IMG/VR virus record: IMGVR_UViG_3300009009_000003
Coordinates: 26,377 to 90,376 of that record
From: a virus
Strand: one strand, 5' to 3'
DNA: 64,000 nt
Position numbers and translations under genes: made by a program
Notes under the pieces: model-generated
Database searches by the model: none
What the model was told of the DNA's origin: nothing
What the model saw: only the letters and a program-made list of their open reading frames with translations
In this document: positions 8,091 to 64,000 of the stretch, in pieces
Layout of the letters: each line of letters starts with the position of its first letter
How positions within the stretch are numbered: position 1 is the first letter of the stretch

Positions 8091-8852
8091 TTATACAAAT
8101 AATAAAGTTTGCGTACAGTGTAATCTTTCTTTTATTTTTTTATAGTAGTATTCATTTTTTTCTATTAGAATAAACCCTCGATTTAATTTTTTACAAGCTA
8201 CCCCTGTAGATCCAGAACCAGCACAGTTATCCAATACCAAATCCCCTTCGTTGGTATAGGTCTTAATTAAATACTCCATTAAAGATACTGGTTTTTGTGT
8301 TGGATGGTAACCTGTTTCCCTTTTTATTTTAATCACACTTTTTGGATAGCGAAGTCCATTATTTTGAGTTTGTTTTTTTACAATTTTCCCTGTAACTTCA
8401 CCGCTGTCACCCTTTCCACTTATGTAAGGTTTTCCGTAAGTAAACTGAGGATTGTATTTCCCCCCACCAAAAACAAGAATGTTTTCATGTGCTTTCATAG
8501 GTTGTTTCTTTGCACTTAAAAAATTTACACCTTGTTCCTTCTCCCAAATAATCTCATATTTAAACATATCAATATTACTCATCACTAAAGCACTTGTAAA
8601 AGGTTGAGAAGCGGTTAAAACTATTGCACCATTGTCTTTTATTATTCTCTTGTACTGCCTCCAAAGTGGTTCAAAAGGAATTACCGTATCCCATTTACAG
8701 GCAGTAGTTCCGTAGGGGGGGTCTGAAATTATTGCGTCTATTGATTTGTCGGGGATAAACTTCATAAGCTCAAGGCAGTCTCCCTGATGCACTTCATTTA
8801 TTTTTAGATGTCCGTTTTCTAAAATATGCATAGAATTTTTCTCAATCTTCAT
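8091..8852 (-). CDS. DNA methyltransferase, N6-adenine/N4-cytosine type
   Basis: A 253-residue methyltransferase of the beta (permuted) class. The catalytic motif IV is AIISDPPYGT (about 41-50), near the N-terminus, and the SAM-binding motif I is LVLDNCAGSGSTGVACKKL (about 205-223), near the C-terminus, preceded by the usual HPTQKP. DPPY predicts amino methylation of adenine or N4-cytosine. It has no linked endonuclease, so it is an orphan enzyme, most likely protecting phage DNA from host restriction or regulating it. The first ATG is used; an in-frame ATG 7 codons later is possible. Confidence 0.85.
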   Translation of the reverse strand: MKIEKNSMHILENGHLKINEVHQGDCLELMKFIPDKSIDAIISDPPYGTTACKWDTVIPFEPLWRQYKRIIKDNGAIVLTASQPFTSALVMSNIDMFKYEIIWEKEQGVNFLSAKKQPMKAHENILVFGGGKYNPQFTYGKPYISGKGDSGEVTGKIVKKQTQNNGLRYPKSVIKIKRETGYHPTQKPVSLMEYLIKTYTNEGDLVLDNCAGSGSTGVACKKLNRGFILIEKNEYYYKKIKERLHCTQTLLFV

Positions 8853-8881: not shown

Positions 8882-9112
8882 CTAAATAATTGTGCAATAC
8901 TTACCAAGCAAATCCTTAAAGCAGTGCTGGCATAGTTCAATAGATACCTCAGTACCATCACCAAACACAGAATCATAGCCACAGTGGTTATGAAAAAAGA
9001 GAGCTTCCTGTTTTTCCACCTCATCACCTAGAATGTCTCGACCACAAACAGAACATGTTATCCCAACAAGATCTAGTTCTTCTTTGACTACCATTCCATA
9101 CTGTCTCATCAC
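8882..9112 (-). CDS. Small zinc-binding protein, paralogue A
   Basis: A 76-residue protein with CSVCGRDI (about 20), a HNHCGYDSVFGDGTEV block and LCQHCF (about 60), which should bind zinc. It is about 65 percent identical to the protein at 9893-10120, including the identical end LGKYCTII, so the two are recent duplicates. I recall proteins with the same GYGSVFGDG core in enterobacterial and other phages, of unknown function. It lies at the downstream edge of the patchwork array that runs to 14411. Confidence 0.75.
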   Translation of the reverse strand: MMRQYGMVVKEELDLVGITCSVCGRDILGDEVEKQEALFFHNHCGYDSVFGDGTEVSIELCQHCFKDLLGKYCTII

Positions 9113-9892: not shown

Positions 9893-10120
9893 CTATATAA
9901 TAGTGCAATACTTGCCAAGAAGCTCCTTAAAGCAGTGCTGGCACAGATCAATATACACCTCTGTGCCATCACCAAACACAGAACCATATCCACAGTAATT
10001 ATGAAAATGCATTGCCTCCTGCCGTTCCATTTTATCATTCAAGAGATCACGCTTACAAACAGAGCATTTTATCTCAACAACATCTCTTTCCTCTCTAGTT
10101 ATGATTCCGTATCGTCTCAT
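9893..10120 (-). CDS. Small zinc-binding protein, paralogue B
   Basis: A 75-residue protein with CSVCKRDL, HNYCGYGSVFGDGTEVYIDL and CQHCF, the same layout as the protein at 8882-9112. Duplicates this close, in the same direction and separated by three unrelated genes, indicate tandem copying followed by insertion or shuffling. Start ATG lies in a GGTGAAGGAATG junction overlapping the previous stop. Function unknown. Confidence 0.75.
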   Translation of the reverse strand: MRRYGIITREERDVVEIKCSVCKRDLLNDKMERQEAMHFHNYCGYGSVFGDGTEVYIDLCQHCFKELLGKYCTII

Positions 10121-11105: not shown

Positions 11106-11702
11106 TCATACTTCCCACTTGCCTTTCTCGTCTTTCTCGAATGTCTTTTTCATCATAAAGTTTCCTGCCGTATGGTAAATGACTATGCCTTCAGGCTTCA
11201 TAAAACATGGGGCAGCGTAACTACCATGTTCTGCAAGCATGGCCATTACTTGAGACACATTCAAGTCATCCATGTTACACTCAAACAATATAGGCACCAG
11301 ACCAATACACTCCGGCAATACCTGCTGCATCTCTGAAATTCTCGGGTCACCTGTTAGTATCTCTTTTGGTTCGCTGCCATACAGGCACCACCTGGTCACA
11401 TTGAACAGGCTAAATCGCTTTTCGCCCTTTGACAGACCATAACCACGCTGGATTCCGCTGCCCCACCATTCTCCAAAGTGCCTGCCTAGACCTAGCTGCA
11501 TAAGCTCGTCCTTGTGGTCATGCGCCCACCTTGAGAAACCATGGTTATCCTTGTCTGGTGTTATCCATCGTGTCCTGCTGCCAGTAAGAAACTCACCATC
11601 ATCGCCAATGAATATCTGTGCGTTAGTACCGTCGATTTTCTCAGTGACGATAACTTTCCGTGAATAACGTGCTATCTTTTGTAATCCTACAAAATCACTC
11701 AT
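11106..11702 (-). CDS. RNA ligase (nucleotidyltransferase superfamily)
   Basis: A 198-residue protein with the ligase motif order: motif I VTEKIDGTNAQIFI with the AMP-accepting Lys (about residue 22), motif III FGEWWGSGIQRGY (about 76-88), motif IV PEGIVIYH (about 168-175) and motif V MMKKTFE (about 182-188). The KxDGTN core and small size fit the Rnl2-like RNA ligase group more than DNA ligases. It may repair RNA cut by host anticodon nucleases. Its ATG sits directly on the SD-encoding tail of the upstream DUF1566 gene (ATGA overlap). Codons are GC-richer than neighbours at 6-8 kb. Confidence 0.75.
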   Translation of the reverse strand: MSDFVGLQKIARYSRKVIVTEKIDGTNAQIFIGDDGEFLTGSRTRWITPDKDNHGFSRWAHDHKDELMQLGLGRHFGEWWGSGIQRGYGLSKGEKRFSLFNVTRWCLYGSEPKEILTGDPRISEMQQVLPECIGLVPILFECNMDDLNVSQVMAMLAEHGSYAAPCFMKPEGIVIYHTAGNFMMKKTFEKDEKGKWEV

Positions 11703-12118
11703 GTTGCCTCCTTATTAAGTTCTGCTATCAGCCTATTTGCTTCATCCCATGTGCAAGGACCTAAGGTTTTCTTACTCCACACAAGGTATGTCGCAGGATC
11801 AAACACAGCAGATCGATTTGTATAGAATGTTTTTCCATTAGGCATTAGTTTGATATTCATATCATCCGGTGGAGCAAACCCATTCCGCACCGCGCGAACG
11901 TAGTAGTGACCGTCCTTACTGTAGTTGAGGACGCTACCGTCGTCGAAATACACGATCCACGCGCCGTATGGACCGTAGGCAGTAGTATTAGAAGACCAAT
12001 AGGAGGACGACTGTGTGTCAGGAAATAGGTCAGTGTTAATAGCAGGATTGTCTCTACTATAATCCACTAAAGAAATAAGCTCTTGTATTTTTGGCAGTCT
12101 CCAGTCGGTGTACTTCAT
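11699..12118 (-). CDS. Permuted DUF1566 (C-type-lectin-fold) protein, copy 1
   Basis: A 139-residue protein of the DUF1566/Lcl-C-terminal group: MKYTDWRLPKIQEL, INTDLFPDTQ, YWSS, AWIVYF and YVRAVRNG occur in family order. In usual members the segment WxxxTxxxCTWxxA precedes the TDWRLP strand; here that part (YLVWSKKTLGPCTWDEANRL) comes last, so the gene looks circularly permuted. Compared with copy 2 (14008), the framework is nearly identical but the codons between DTQ and RAVR differ mainly at first and second positions, a diversifying pattern. The last residues LIAELNKEA are shared with two other genes and encode AAGGAGG for the next gene. Probably a binding protein; ligand unknown. Confidence 0.7.
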   Translation of the reverse strand: MKYTDWRLPKIQELISLVDYSRDNPAINTDLFPDTQSSSYWSSNTTAYGPYGAWIVYFDDGSVLNYSKDGHYYVRAVRNGFAPPDDMNIKLMPNGKTFYTNRSAVFDPATYLVWSKKTLGPCTWDEANRLIAELNKEAT

Positions 12119-12309
12119 TCTTTTATCTCCGCATCTCGGCAGCGTTTGAGTCGCTTGGGGTTCCAGTTTGTAGTTGGAAACTTATGGTTAAATAACCTAC
12201 AAAAATGACTGTCAAAGGTAAATCGTAACCAGTTACAACAAAGCCTTCCATTGCAGCACCTCGTCTTAGTGACATCCTTGCCTAAGTCAATCAATGGTCT
12301 TATCTTCAT
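12115..12309 (-). CDS. Small Cys-rich protein, paralogue 1
   Basis: A 64-residue protein starting MKIRPLIDLGKDVTKTRC, with Cys at about 18-19, 24-25, 37 and 57, probably a zinc site. It is homologous to the protein at 12619-12816 (shared MKIRxLIDLG start, PKRLK and CR near the end). Its start lies in a GGTGAAGGAATG junction and its end (EIKE) carries a weaker version of the same junction. Function unknown. Confidence 0.65.
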   Translation of the reverse strand: MKIRPLIDLGKDVTKTRCCNGRLCCNWLRFTFDSHFCRLFNHKFPTTNWNPKRLKRCRDAEIKE

Positions 12310-12322
12310 TCCTTCACCTCCT

Positions 12323-12622
12323 CTACCTATTTAACTCATCTCTTACAATAGACCTGACACGTTTAACGAGTGCATCAGTATCAATTCCAGCTCTCTTTAA
12401 ATCTTCTTCAAGAATCTTCAGTGGTATGTCCTGTATAAAATCATATTTGGCATCAAAAAAGGGGCTTTCGATTATGGTTACATTTTCTTTTACCACCAGT
12501 TCGCTTATTCTATACATACCTTTTGCCACTATCTCAACAGCCTTGTCATATTCTTTATTTCTTATTAATAGGGATAATGTAGCTAGCATATTATAGATTT
12601 GCTCATACTCTTGTATCGTCAT
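12323..12622 (-). CDS. Helical protein of unknown function
   Basis: A 99-residue protein, mostly helical (IQEYEQIYNMLATLSLLIRN, then KEYDKAVEIVAKGMYRISEL), ending in a basic helix (VKRVRSIVRDELNR). No Cys, no membrane span, no known motif. It is preceded by a GGAGGTGAAGGAATG junction overlapping the upstream stop. It separates the two copies of the Cys-rich paralogue, which suggests it inserted or travelled with them. Confidence 0.65.
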   Translation of the reverse strand: MTIQEYEQIYNMLATLSLLIRNKEYDKAVEIVAKGMYRISELVVKENVTIIESPFFDAKYDFIQDIPLKILEEDLKRAGIDTDALVKRVRSIVRDELNR

Positions 12623-12816
12623 TCCTTCACCTCCATCTCACGACAAATCTTAAGTCGCTTTGGTTCTTTGTTGCCAAATGGGAGAACTAGGTTAAAGGCC
12701 TCACAGTACACATGACCAGAAGACGTATCAAGGAACCGGCATTTTTTTAAACCATTTTTAGTAGCGCATTTTGTGGTAGTAACATCTCCCAAGTCAATCA
12801 ACATGCGTATCTTCAT
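12619..12816 (-). CDS. Small Cys-rich protein, paralogue 2
   Basis: A 65-residue protein starting MKIRMLIDLGDVTTTKC, with Cys at about 17, 26, 38 and 58, homologous to the protein at 12115-12309. Three of the Cys positions and the NKEPKRLKICRE segment align with the copy. The start sits in a GGTGAAGGAATG junction placed after, not over, the preceding stop. The EVKE end encodes GAGGTGAAGGA, the ribosome site of the downstream gene. Function unknown. Confidence 0.65.
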   Translation of the reverse strand: MKIRMLIDLGDVTTTKCATKNGLKKCRFLDTSSGHVYCEAFNLVLPFGNKEPKRLKICREMEVKE

Positions 12817-12828
12817 TCCTTCACCTCA

Positions 12829-13650
12829 TCATTCAGTTTTGGCATACACATATATAACGCCATTAACACATCCAAATAGTGCATAACCTTTTTGCCATAC
12901 TTGCCATGCTGCCTTAGAATATTTAATATGTTTCCTGTTTAGCTTTAAACCATGGCATATACAATTACATGCCACATAATTTGCAGCATCCCAGGCAGCA
13001 TACCTGGCATCATTCCAGGCAGCATCCCAGGCAGCATTCCAGGCATCATACCTGGCAGCATCACAGGCAGCATTACTGGCAGCATTACCGGCAGCATCAC
13101 AGGCAGCATTCCTGGCATCATACCTGGCAGCATTACTGGCAGCATCACAGGCAGCATTCCTGGCAGCATTACTGGCAGCATACCTGGCAGCATTACTGGC
13201 AGCATCACAGGCAGCATTCCTGGCATCATACCTGGCAGCATACCAAGTTTTTCCAGTAAACAGTTTCCATGACTTTAATGGTTTTCCGTCCGGTTTTAAA
13301 AATTGCACATGCTTGATACTATCAACAAAATCAATAGCATCTAACCACCATTTAGGATGTTGTACTGGCTTTAGCAACCGTGCCCCAACAAAAACCGATT
13401 TATCGTCCTGGTGTATAGCACCATCCAGTATTGGCTCCGCCTCATAGCAGATACAATTCCATTTGTACCATTGATAAGGTTTGGTGGTCAGATGGATTCC
13501 ACTACTACACATAACAATGTCATCATCAATCTTGTGCCATTTACCTGGTGTCCACTTTCCTTTTTTATCTTGCTTAGGCAGTGACCAGGTAAGATCACCG
13601 CCGTTGCATGACTTACCATCAACCAGTATTTTGTAATATTTGGTTTTCAT
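12829..13650 (-). CDS. DUF7666-type protein with 22 Ala-rich tetrapeptide repeats
   Basis: A 273-residue protein. The N-terminal domain (about 1-135) has the marks KILVDGKSCNGGDLTWSLP, KWTPGKWHK, CSSGIHLT and CYEAEP, which I recognise from a phage/bacterial family (DUF7666). It is followed by about 22 tandem four-residue repeats of the form [AD]A-x-[NDY] (AARY, DARN, AACD, AASN and so on, about residues 137-225) and a short C-terminal domain (SKAAWQVWQKGYALFGCVNG). Family members often carry such Ala-rich arrays, probably helical, of variable length. The array is a 12-bp minisatellite at DNA level. Function unknown; immunity roles proposed for relatives are unproven. Confidence 0.7.
   Translation of the reverse strand: MKTKYYKILVDGKSCNGGDLTWSLPKQDKKGKWTPGKWHKIDDDIVMCSSGIHLTTKPYQWYKWNCICYEAEPILDGAIHQDDKSVFVGARLLKPVQHPKWWLDAIDFVDSIKHVQFLKPDGKPLKSWKLFTGKTWYAARYDARNAACDAASNAARYAASNAARNAACDAASNAARYDARNAACDAAGNAASNAACDAARYDAWNAAWDAAWNDARYAAWDAANYVACNCICHGLKLNRKHIKYSKAAWQVWQKGYALFGCVNGVIYVYAKTE
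12975..13243 (-). repeat. 12-bp coding minisatellite (tetrapeptide array)
   Basis: About 22 units of 12 bp with the plus-strand core GGCAGCATtaCt/caCa/tcCt or GGCATCATACCT. It lies in the DUF7666-type gene and encodes [AD]A-x-[NDY]. Because the unit is a multiple of three without stops, long empty frames appear on both strands. Confidence 0.85.
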
Positions 13651-13744: not shown

Positions 13745-14011
13745 TTATTCTTTCACCTCACTCAACTTATGCCAAATTATGCAGGCGTAGTGTGCCAGCT
13801 TCAGCATGTCACGTTTCTGCTCCTCGGAACCCCTGGCATTGTTGCCAAACCTGGCACAATATTTTTTTATGTCGTTGATAATCTCAGCAGGCGATAGCTC
13901 GGTGCATCGGTCTTGGCCCTTCTCGCCGTATTGTTTTACGGTGTAATGCTCGATGTGATCATCAACGATGCTGCTAAACCAAGACCATTCGCCTCTGCGT
14001 GTTTCCATCAT
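13745..14011 (-). CDS. Conserved small phage protein, unknown
   Basis: An 88-residue protein with a recognisable core: VKQYGEKGQDR, IINDIKKYCARFGNNARGSE and HYACIIWHKL. I have seen the YGE...YxxRFGxNARGxxEQxxDxxKxAHYA pattern in other phage proteins but know no function. Mostly helical, no Cys cluster. The ATG at 14011 overlaps the upstream stop and uses the AAGGAGG encoded by the LIAELNKEAI tail of the DUF1566 copy 2 gene. Its own end is EVKE. Confidence 0.65.
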   Translation of the reverse strand: MMETRRGEWSWFSSIVDDHIEHYTVKQYGEKGQDRCTELSPAEIINDIKKYCARFGNNARGSEEQKRDMLKLAHYACIIWHKLSEVKE

Positions 14012-14409
14012 ATCGCCTCCTTATTAAGTTCTGCTATCAGTTCATTGGCTTCGTACCATGTGCAAATGCCTAGAGTTTTCTGCATCCATATAAGACCTGT
14101 ACTATTATCAGTGACTGTGCCATCTCCATTATCAGTGAACTTTGGATCAGCATTTAATGACCCACACTGTCCGGACCGCACCGCACGAAAGTAGTTGTAG
14201 TGGTCCTTAAAGTAGTAGTAGACGTTGCCGTAGCTGAAACTCACGACCCATGCGGAGTAGGGAGTGCCGACAAGGGTAGTAGACGACCAATAGCCGTACG
14301 CCTGCGTGTCAGGAAATAGGTCAGTGTTAATAGCAGGATCAAACTTGCTTCTATCTACTATAGAATTTAGTTCATCAACTGTAGGTAACCGCCAGTCGGT
14401 GTATTTCAT
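14008..14409 (-). CDS. Permuted DUF1566 (C-type-lectin-fold) protein, copy 2
   Basis: A 133-residue protein: MKYTDWRLPTVDELNSIV, AINTDLFPDTQ, YWSSTT, AWVVSF, FRAVRSG, then FTDNGDGTVTDNSTGLIWMQ and CTWYEANELIAEL. In ordinary DUF1566 proteins the NGDGTVTDNxTGLxW segment opens the domain and TDWRLP follows, so the order here is permuted by a stop/start placed before KYTDW. Between DTQ and RAVR the codons are mostly NNC/NNT with Tyr, Asn, Ser, Gly, Asp and His, the signature of a hypervariable lectin surface. Ends with LIAELNKEAI, the tail shared with the Mre11-like gene. A diversity-generating system is a possible source, but no reverse transcriptase is in the window. Confidence 0.7.
   Translation of the reverse strand: MKYTDWRLPTVDELNSIVDRSKFDPAINTDLFPDTQAYGYWSSTTLVGTPYSAWVVSFSYGNVYYYFKDHYNYFRAVRSGQCGSLNADPKFTDNGDGTVTDNSTGLIWMQKTLGICTWYEANELIAELNKEAI
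14016..14040 (-). repeat. SD-encoding junction repeat, copy at DUF1566 copy 2
   Basis: A 25-bp sequence that occurs identically at 14016-14040, 14414-14438 and 11707-11731. On the coding strand it encodes LIAELNKEA and contains AATAAGGAGG, the ribosome site of the downstream gene. Confidence 0.85.
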
Positions 14410-15311
14410 ATCGCCTCCTTATTAAGTTCTGCTATCAGCTTGTTTACTAATTCTTTCACACAATTTTCTATATTGTTTGCCACCATAAAATTTTCCAAGT
14501 TGTTTTCAAATTTTAAATTTTCCATTATCTTATCTTCACTAAGACCATTAACAAAGGCTTCCAATTTTCTATTAATCTCCTTTTCTTTTTCTAATAGTGA
14601 CAAATCAAAAACGTTATCTTTTACCGGTATTTCTACTCTTTTAGCATTTAATGTTTGTGTATCATAAACAAAAAAACAAGGTTTATGATCAACTTGTGTT
14701 ATGTCCATTCGCATTAATGACCCAGGATTTATTAACATTCTGCTTCCATTTTGTACTGTAAAAGTTTTGTGGTTATCCCCTGTAACAATAAGATCATAAA
14801 AACTGTTAGCATTTAAAAATTCTACAGCATCCATTGAATTAGGAACTTCTTCTCTAAAACAAATAAGACCATGGTAGATCAAAATATTGAATAAATTTGT
14901 ATCTTCAACTTTAGGTATTGTTTCTCCAAAATTACAAAAGTAAATCTTTTCTTTTGTTTTCTTTTCTTCTTGACAAAAATCGGTTCTACTGGAAATAAAT
15001 ACTTTTGCACTTTCTAAAACTGCTAGTGGTGTATTGTCCATCTTATCATTTGAATGGTATCGCATATCGTGTTGTCCGAAAACACCAATCATAGTGGTTT
15101 TAGAAAGAATTTGAATCATGGTTCTTAAAGTTTCGTATGAAATTTTCTTTGTATGGAAGATATCCCCACAATTAAGAATATCCATATTTTCACGACAAGA
15201 ATATGAAACGATGTAATTAATCTTTCTAATTTGTTCTTTAACATAATCATCAGTCCTTCTTTTTGGTGGTTGGTCTGTAATATGCCAATCACTAGTTATT
15301 ATATACTTCAT
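14406..15311 (-). CDS. Mre11/SbcD-type nuclease (T4 gp47-like)
   Basis: A 301-residue metallophosphoesterase of the Mre11 group. Motifs in order: ITSDWHITD (about 5-13), NCGDIFHTK (about 46-54), VFGQHDMRYH (about 76-85), ILIYHGL (about 142-148) and VTGDNHKTF (about 173-181), covering the two-metal site. The C-terminal helix should dock on the Rad50 coiled coil. It is followed immediately upstream by the Rad50 N-terminal half (1-base gap), and the C-terminal half is 7 kb away. The last 11 residues, KLIAELNKEAI, are identical to the end of the DUF1566 copy 2 protein and appear to have been added by recombination at the gene border. Confidence 0.85.
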   Translation of the reverse strand: MKYIITSDWHITDQPPKRRTDDYVKEQIRKINYIVSYSCRENMDILNCGDIFHTKKISYETLRTMIQILSKTTMIGVFGQHDMRYHSNDKMDNTPLAVLESAKVFISSRTDFCQEEKKTKEKIYFCNFGETIPKVEDTNLFNILIYHGLICFREEVPNSMDAVEFLNANSFYDLIVTGDNHKTFTVQNGSRMLINPGSLMRMDITQVDHKPCFFVYDTQTLNAKRVEIPVKDNVFDLSLLEKEKEINRKLEAFVNGLSEDKIMENLKFENNLENFMVANNIENCVKELVNKLIAELNKEAI

Positions 15312-63700: not shown

Positions 63701-64000
63701 GAAAGAGATGCTATTTTAGATCAAATAAATTTGACAAAGAATCAACTTGTTGCAGCTAAAGCTGCTGTGATAGAAAAAATTAAAGAGCAGAGATATTTTA
63801 CTTTAGAAAATGGAAAGCAGGTACAATACCTTTCGGAATCAATGTATCATTTAGATCAATTATTTATTAATTTAGGGAATAGTGCTGAGAAGGCTGGAAA
63901 TAAGATGAAGGAGTCTTTTACACCTCTCTCCGAAAGACTAACCACTTCTTATTTTGAAACTATATCTGATACTCTTGGGAATATAGTTAGTGCATCTGAA
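60752..64000 (+). CDS. Tail tape measure protein, 3' truncated by the window
   Basis: ATG at 60752 overlaps the chaperone stop (TAATG) and has AGGAGG ten bases upstream. At least 1083 residues are visible and the frame is open to the last base. Residues about 125-340 form the TP901-type tape measure core (DYDQALQNIRAITGATTAEM, TRFSTREVSEGAVIFGQAGF, ASLMVLSDNGLRASTMATGL, RAFELFGIWGAQAATVLIDS). Hydrophobic segments follow (FYGTIPVTLLLIGKI near 455, and LLILGLSGLITWIYK near 520), then long coiled coils rich in Lys/Glu (about 760-1050). It sets tail length and probably enters the host membrane on injection. Confidence 0.9.
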   Translation, partial: MEQDRQLSLGVLFTGKMDSSFRTAISSLQNALSGLNNIITRSEGITRNAAKVNRDFSSSTDKAKKSTENLSRTLTRGQTATTQFAGAIQRLGTAMKIIASFSMAGSILFTLIDSFKSGVKNIIDYDQALQNIRAITGATTAEMSGLSKTIQEVASNTRFSTREVSEGAVIFGQAGFTASETTMALKAAADLAQGTMESMEQTVDLLSSTVRAFNLDASESGRVADVMANAINKSKLTVEKLRVAFNYVGAIASQTNVSLEETGASLMVLSDNGLRASTMATGLRRILSTLIAPTDKVKERMSNMGIAITDIDPAVKGFQVALRNLVSILKDQKTNTIDSSRAFELFGIWGAQAATVLIDSFNTNEFNTALLKIKETGTAADMSSIQAEGLGVIFSRIATQAGIMAIRIGDAGLGGSLRILGTIMRKSLETFNDFLKDGLGKMIVSTGLVSAVFYGTIPVTLLLIGKIRDLKNAFFAAILGVQALNTAMKGAIVTVGTFRASLILLKQALISNWFGLLILGLSGLITWIYKVTHATDDLIQKNHDYQGTLDEQKGSLLRYRGALVQLHESNVAAGEVTEEYNRTISRLIKDHEELTGVVDVTTASYEQLVEGIDKLINNISLLKLSVMKDDIDNLAMSLEESRDKSELFSMFIKRTAMGLAGLDITTAKYNQTLDKYAESTDKGRAALLKLRNAEESLRQNTITLALANKWGKDQAVKYYTELVKQSKFLSKESDKHVKTFSKSWDIIVTKQEEGLKSYVNYAEQIHKSKMLLKDLALQAAKLKEDKTVDPKGEKQIAVARAVHAENVKLAESEYKKKELMESEDYNKKILQRERDETIRDSQIEMELDILRIQNEQDRVQSNIRDKRLEYQKQLEDQIIAEKSASLAIEARTQAYAMLLDREQRYQESLAKVDDKTTIGLDEKIRLQKDLTTTKEAELQLQKKIMDATIDNDAKVRELQESLNNQQLSYAKQQLETNKIMSETERDAILDQINLTKNQLVAAKAAVIEKIKEQRYFTLENGKQVQYLSESMYHLDQLFINLGNSAEKAGNKMKESFTPLSERLTTSYFETISDTLGNIVSASE

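What the first reader, a model, noticed from the sequence alone, without database searches (positions are those of the whole stretch)
14016..14330. DUF1566 lectin-fold pair shows a diversifying pattern like DGR target proteins
The proteins at 14008 and 11699 share nearly identical framework codons (MKYTDWRLP, INTDLFPDTQ, RAVR), but between DTQ and RAVR almost every codon of NNC/NNT type differs. In my hand alignment of that stretch, first- and second-position differences clearly outnumber third-position ones, the reverse of neutral drift. The substituted residues are Tyr, Ser, Asp, Asn, Gly, His and Leu in C/T-ending codons, as expected if AAY codons in a template were mutated at A. C-type-lectin-fold proteins are the typical targets of diversity-generating retroelements (established). 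No reverse transcriptase or template repeat was seen in this window.
Basis: partly seen in the sequence, partly recalled or inferred. Interest (0 to 1): 0.8.

Follow-up and report, generated by a model that had tools for sequence, protein, structure and literature searches.

The report
Orphan hypermutation targets in a phage
A phage genome that looks complete carries two small lectin-like genes whose variable stretches bear the mutation signature of a diversity-generating retroelement, yet the genome has neither the reverse transcriptase nor the template that would make such variation, so the machinery must sit elsewhere (most likely in the host) or have acted before the phage captured the genes.

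Summary
The two Lcl_C/DUF1566 genes (14008-14409 and 11699-12118, minus strand) differ at 21 amino acids in codons 37-75, and 20 of these 21 codons keep the same third base. In flanking codons the figure is 13/36 (P = 7e-6). Retroelement-free DUF1566 paralogues give a median of 30% (maximum 52%, 105 pairs); phages with DUF1566 target pairs, most on contigs that carry an RT, give 74-93%. The stretch is 54% GC in a 36% GC genome. Its changed codons coincide with AAY codons of real template repeats (L061; a gammaproteobacterial chromosome, L130). This is the adenine-to-N signature of diversity-generating retroelements (DGRs).

New facts: (1) the 90-kb contig has an exact 123-bp end repeat inside the tape-measure gene, so it is very probably a complete genome, and no RT, Avd or template was found in it. 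(2) Both proteins are circular permutants of the DUF1566 domain, with the variable region in the N-terminal half. (3) The complete syntenic relative (89 kb) lacks DUF1566 and RT, so the cassettes are an acquisition.

Best explanation: captured DGR variable regions, most likely served in trans by a host or prophage DGR (55%). The rival is frozen copies diversified before capture (38%). Ongoing activity and host are not shown. New variant of a known kind.

The parts
14008..14409 (-). DUF1566/Lcl_C protein a, 133 aa, circularly permuted
   Evidence: Pfam Lcl_C E 3.6e-34: residues 3-78 match profile 42-117; the C-terminal stretch 14011-14121 matches profile 1-39
14176..14301 (-). variable-region-like stretch of a (codons 37-78)
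14302..14409 (-). conserved N-terminal framework of a (codons 1-36); codons 25-36 are 97% identical in DNA to b
14011..14139 (-). N-terminal half of the DUF1566 domain, moved to the C-terminus of protein a
11699..12118 (-). DUF1566/Lcl_C protein b, 139 aa, same permuted order
   Evidence: Pfam Lcl_C E 7.2e-32; 11885-12124 matches profile 38-117, 11705-11809 matches profile 2-38
11885..12010 (-). variable-region-like stretch of b (codons 37-78)
11702..11857 (-). relocated domain half at the C-terminus of protein b
14406..14448 (-). copy of the shared 43-nt cassette end (LIAELNKEAI plus Shine-Dalgarno AAGGAGG) at the 3' end of the metallophosphoesterase gene 14406..15311
   Evidence: repeat family D4; the complete relative ends this gene differently
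14008..14050 (-). copy of the shared 43-nt cassette end, in gene a
11699..11741 (-). copy of the shared 43-nt cassette end, in gene b
63878..64000 (.). exact 123-bp direct repeat of the contig's first 123 bases, inside the tape-measure gene: the ends join
   Evidence: reading frame continuous across the junction

Best explanation
Genes a and b are captured target genes of a DGR. Shown here: their central stretches carry the result of adenine-specific mutagenic retrohoming, namely replacement of AAY codons by NNY with the third base kept, and DNA composition unlike the rest of the phage. Shown: the phage genome, which looks complete, encodes no RT, Avd or template that these searches can see. 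Inferred: the phage works as a target-only element. A DGR resident in the host chromosome, a prophage or a co-infecting phage supplies RT, Avd and template RNA, and its cDNA homes into both copies, giving the phage two varying C-type-lectin-fold binding proteins without carrying the machinery. Inferred: the proteins bind varying ligands. They have no obvious signal peptide and sit among DNA-metabolism and methyltransferase genes rather than in the tail module, so an intracellular or counter-defence partner is as likely as a host receptor.
For: Third-base conservation at changed codons: 20/21 against 13/36 in flanks, at most 52% in 105 RT-free paralogue pairs, and 74-93% in DGR-type phage pairs. 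Variable region GC 54% against 39-42% in flanks and 35.6% genome-wide; third-base C far above the phage's 22%; third-base A almost absent, 1 of 42 in each copy. Amino-acid changes fall on the AAY codons of the L061 template, 10/12 against 3/16 elsewhere, P = 0.0016; a gammaproteobacterial chromosomal template (L130) shows the same AAY frame and third bases, also at codons 48, 49, 52 and 55, outside the search pattern. Nearest viral relatives, 57% identical, lie beside an RT and a template 'NFNNGNVNNNDINNN'. Third positions differ less in the variable region (7/42) than in flanks (37/69), P = 1.2e-4, which fits refreshment of both copies from one template after the flanks had diverged. Genome probably complete: 123-bp end repeat. 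No RT, Avd or template. Remote targets are an accepted DGR feature, and second variable regions far from the RT near methyltransferase genes are reported in gut prophages (PMC12629997); here 8091..8852 is an N6_N4_Mtase.
Against: No template or RT that serves these genes was found, and the host is unknown. No population or read data show ongoing change. Six of 19 unchanged-residue codons in the variable region differ synonymously; all six are four-fold codons, which template wobble adenines could explain, but drift could too. No GC-rich 7-10 bp hairpin with a 4-nt loop follows either variable region.
Confidence: 0.55

Rival explanations
1. Frozen capture: the phage picked up two already diversified target genes from a DGR-bearing genome; no DGR acts on them now and the residues are inherited or selected normally.
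For: No machinery in the phage. The syntenic complete relative has neither DUF1566 nor RT, so the genes are a lineage-specific gain. Three copies of a 43-nt end element suggest insertion by recombination. Some synonymous differences exist inside the variable region.
Against: The variable regions have not drifted to the phage's AT-rich codon use (GC 54% against 36%), and third-base agreement is higher than in the flanks. This means recent homing, recent capture, or both.
Confidence: 0.38
2. The RT and template belong to the phage but are missing from the assembly.
For: IMG/VR contigs are often fragments.
Against: An exact 123-bp repeat at the contig ends, with the tape-measure frame continuous across the junction. 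The complete syntenic relative (89,207 bp, 127-bp end repeat) also has no RT.
Confidence: 0.04
3. Ordinary positive selection on a lectin-like binding surface, with no retroelement involved.
For: DUF1566 loops are surface exposed, and amino-acid change can exceed synonymous change under selection (established knowledge, not tested here).
Against: Selection on residues does not hold the third base fixed. RT-free DUF1566 paralogues and other paralogues of this phage show 17-55% third-base agreement, not 95%. Selection does not raise local GC.
Confidence: 0.03

Closest known systems
Viral DGRs with small DUF1566 targets: IMGVR_UViG_3300034073_003927 (L007) and IMGVR_UViG_2919688452_000001 (L008)
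   Same: Small DUF1566 proteins (123-145 aa, three per phage), 57% identity to a, variable codons at the same places, DNA methyltransferase genes nearby (L007)
   Different: RT and template present; normal domain order with the variable region at the 3' end of the gene
IMGVR_UViG_3300035493_000046 (L061) DGR
   Same: Best-matching viral template by the adenine-tolerant count; AAY codons coincide with the varied codons
   Different: Target is the end of a large fibre-like protein; RT and a helical Avd-like gene alongside; hairpin present downstream
Bordetella phage BPP-1 DGR (Mtd)
   Same: Inferred mechanism: adenine-specific mutagenic retrohoming into a C-type-lectin-fold protein (PMC3240598)
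   Different: Complete DGR in cis, tail-fibre target, variable region at the gene's 3' end followed by a hairpin
Remote DGR targets (PMC7517822, PMC8144416; distal second variable regions in gut prophages, PMC12629997)
   Same: Variable region far from any RT; in gut prophages near methyltransferase genes
   Different: There the RT is in the same genome; here it is absent from a phage genome that looks complete
Legionella Lcl C-terminal domain (PDB 8q4e) and Treponema TvpA (PDB 2y3c)
   Same: Model residues 1-80 align: Z 5.5, rmsd 2.7 over 70 residues; Z 3.3, rmsd 3.3 over 77 residues
   Different: Only the C-terminal half of Lcl_C (332-401) aligns, as expected for a permuted order

Membership tests
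DUF1566 / Lcl_C (PF07603) | Profile match over the curated cut-off | tested here: met
   118 and 110.6 bits against cut-off 34.9
DUF1566 / Lcl_C (PF07603) | Domain order as in the profile | tested here: not met
   Circularly permuted in both proteins: profile ~38-117 comes first, ~1-39 last. Filed as a permuted variant of the family
C-type lectin fold | Fold matches solved CLec-fold DUF1566 or variable proteins | tested here: inconclusive
   One good model (pLDDT 89, pTM 0.83; the other four models poor). Residues 1-80 align with 8q4e at Z 5.5 and 2y3c at Z 3.3; no Foldseek hit below E 0.001
DGR target gene (variable repeat) | Differences confined to template adenines, giving NNY in place of AAY | tested here: inconclusive
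   The signature is met statistically, but the cognate template was not found, so the test against it could not be made
DGR target gene (variable repeat) | Hairpin/cruciform just downstream of the variable region (phage DGRs, PMC3240598) | tested here: inconclusive
   Not found in a or b, but also not found in L007, L008 or L043; found in L061
Complete DGR | DGR-type reverse transcriptase | tested here: not met
   No PF00078 match in 90,376 bp, no match to the L061 RT; the same family search finds the RTs of G001 and G002
Complete DGR | Template repeat | tested here: not met
   Adenine-tolerant scan of both strands of the whole contig: nothing above background
Complete DGR | Accessory protein Avd | tested here: not met
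   No PF05635 match; some DGRs lack Avd
Active DGR target | Variation of the region within a population | not testable with these tools
   No reads; no near-identical phage in the collections

The most novel reading that the evidence does not exclude
Phages can be target-only parasites of DGRs: a phage that carries permuted variable-protein cassettes and uses its host's (or a resident prophage's) retroelement in trans to diversify its own proteins, never encoding the mutator itself.
Probability: 0.4. Interest if true: 0.8.

Novelty: new variant of a known kind. Interest (0 to 1): 0.58.

Why it matters
Surveys find DGRs by their RT and a nearby template, and the authors of the largest one note that they miss remote targets (PMC8144416). 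A phage genome that looks complete, with two DGR-type variable regions and no RT, suggests that such targets travel alone and that diversification could be borrowed from another genome. The third-base test used here needs no RT or template, so it could be run on any paralogue pair to find more orphan targets. Circular permutation puts the variable region in the N-terminal half of the protein, so a position at the gene's 3' end may not be required.

Tried and rejected
Direct search for close relatives of protein a in viral contigs found none, and the annotated phages gave no tblastn hit. Scans of viral contigs for the shared cassette end and for a template with the exact GCGGTGCGG end found none. 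The template search in 369 gammaproteobacterial genomes gave one DGR (L130), which is not this phage's host system as far as can be told. A weak Lcl_C hit in relative G401 (16.7 bits, one stop) was judged spurious. RecA-like and terminase-region queries did not find close relatives; the major capsid protein did. A Pfam number guessed for an accessory family turned out to be an unrelated family and gives no information. Ordinary selection was rejected by the third-base controls. Papers on host DGRs acting on phage targets: none found in the library with the terms used; this is not proof that none exist.

Full report
Setting. The window is bases 26377-90376 of a 90,376-bp IMG/VR virus record. 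The contig's first and last 123 bases are identical, and the tape-measure reading frame that runs off the window's end continues from the contig's start, so the ends join and the genome is very probably complete. It is a tailed phage with terminase, head protease and major capsid genes, its own family A DNA polymerase, clamp loader, primase and helicase. The nearest genomes are found through the capsid protein (54-67% identity). One of them, 89,207 bp with a 127-bp end repeat, keeps the order clamp loader, RecA-like protein, nuclease, SbcC-like ATPase and metallophosphoesterase.

Observation. Genes a (14008..14409) and b (11699..12118), both on the minus strand, are 57% identical in protein. 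From codon 37 to 75, 21 codons change the amino acid and 20 of those keep their third base; in the rest of the gene only 13 of 36 do (P = 7e-6). The same count on 105 pairs of DUF1566 domains from a genome with many such domains and no RT (G003) has median 30% and maximum 52%. Pairs in phages with DUF1566 variable-region pairs give 74-93%. Two other paralogue pairs of this phage give 12/22 and 5/30. The third base is mostly C in a phage that uses C in only 22% of such codons, the stretch is 54% GC against 36% genome-wide, and third-position A is nearly absent. The pattern is real and not chance.

What it matches. The nearest viral relatives lie beside a reverse transcriptase and a template in which the varied codons are AAC or AAT. 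A scan of viral contigs for the template motif gave 81 stretches. The best by an adenine-tolerant count is L061, with an RT, an upstream helical gene of Avd-like size, a template, and a fibre-like DUF1566 target. Its AAY codons predict where a and b differ: 10 of 12 changed, against 3 of 16 other codons (P = 0.0016). A gammaproteobacterial chromosome carries a DGR whose template agrees with the third bases of a and b, also at codons 48, 49, 52 and 55, outside the searched motif. The search itself selected templates with this motif, so the match within the motif is partly by construction.

Missing machinery. No RT, no Avd and no template in an adenine-tolerant scan of both strands. The RT family search works on related DGR phages. 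None of 26 related phage records has an RT or a credible DUF1566 gene (the one weak hit is spurious), although most of them are fragments. The two genes are therefore a gain of this phage.

Anatomy. Both proteins start in the middle of the domain (DWRLP...RAVR) and end with its first part (DNGDGTVTDN...LIAELN): profile positions ~38-117 come first, ~1-39 last. This is a circular permutation, as would arise from one unit of a tandem array cut out of register. The best AlphaFold model is confident (pLDDT 89, pTM 0.83), but four of the five models are poor. Its first 80 residues align with the C-terminal half of Legionella Lcl (8q4e, Z 5.5) and with Treponema TvpA (2y3c, Z 3.3). A 43-nt end element that holds the next gene's ribosome-binding site occurs three times: at the ends of a, of b, and of the metallophosphoesterase gene upstream of a. 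In the complete relative that gene ends differently and no DUF1566 gene follows. This suggests insertion by homologous recombination at the element (inference).

Timing. Codons 1-24 and 79-123 differ at 37 of 69 third positions, the variable stretch at 7 of 42 (P = 1.2e-4). The variable stretches therefore look younger than the genes around them, as expected if both were rewritten from one template after the flanks diverged. The rewriting may have taken place in this phage or in its donors; the data do not decide. Codons 25-36 are nearly identical in DNA and keep their adenines, which the model does not explain; a conversion tract is one possibility.

Interpretation. That these are DGR-made variable regions is close to settled (about 93%). 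Whether a host or prophage DGR still acts on them in trans (55%) or they are frozen captures (38%) is open and needs reads or the host genome. Their place beside methyltransferase, RNA ligase and DNA-metabolism genes, not in the tail module, recalls the distal variable regions near methyltransferase genes in gut prophages (PMC12629997). What they bind is unknown.

Noticed in passing
window 12829..13650 (-): A 273-aa protein with about 20 tandem copies of a 12-bp (4-residue, Ala/Asn/Asp/Arg-rich) repeat between the two DUF1566 genes; the repeat region matches phrog_8332 (unknown function).
   Followed up: no
window 8882..9112 and 9893..10120 (-); 12115..12309 and 12619..12816 (-): Two pairs of small Cys-rich paralogues in the same accessory region; used as internal controls, they show the usual substitution pattern.
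   Followed up: partly
window 14302-14337 and 12011-12046 (codons 25-36 of both genes): 36 nt before the variable stretch are 97% identical between the copies while codons 1-24 are only 64% identical; its adenines are unmutated. Unexplained; perhaps a conversion tract.
   Followed up: partly
L007, L008, L043, L044, L084: Small DUF1566 genes with DGR-type variable regions occur as sets of two or three in phage accessory regions; in L007 the neighbours include DNA methyltransferases. This may be a recurring, little-described target class.
   Followed up: partly
L130 (G125:C72): A gammaproteobacterial chromosomal DGR: secreted-looking DUF1566 target, Avd-like gene, template and RT.
   Followed up: no
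L009 genome (G003, bacterium UBP6_UBA1177): At least 152 Lcl_C/DUF1566 domain matches, many in tandem arrays in proteins up to about 2000 aa, with no RT found: a large expansion without a DGR.
   Followed up: no
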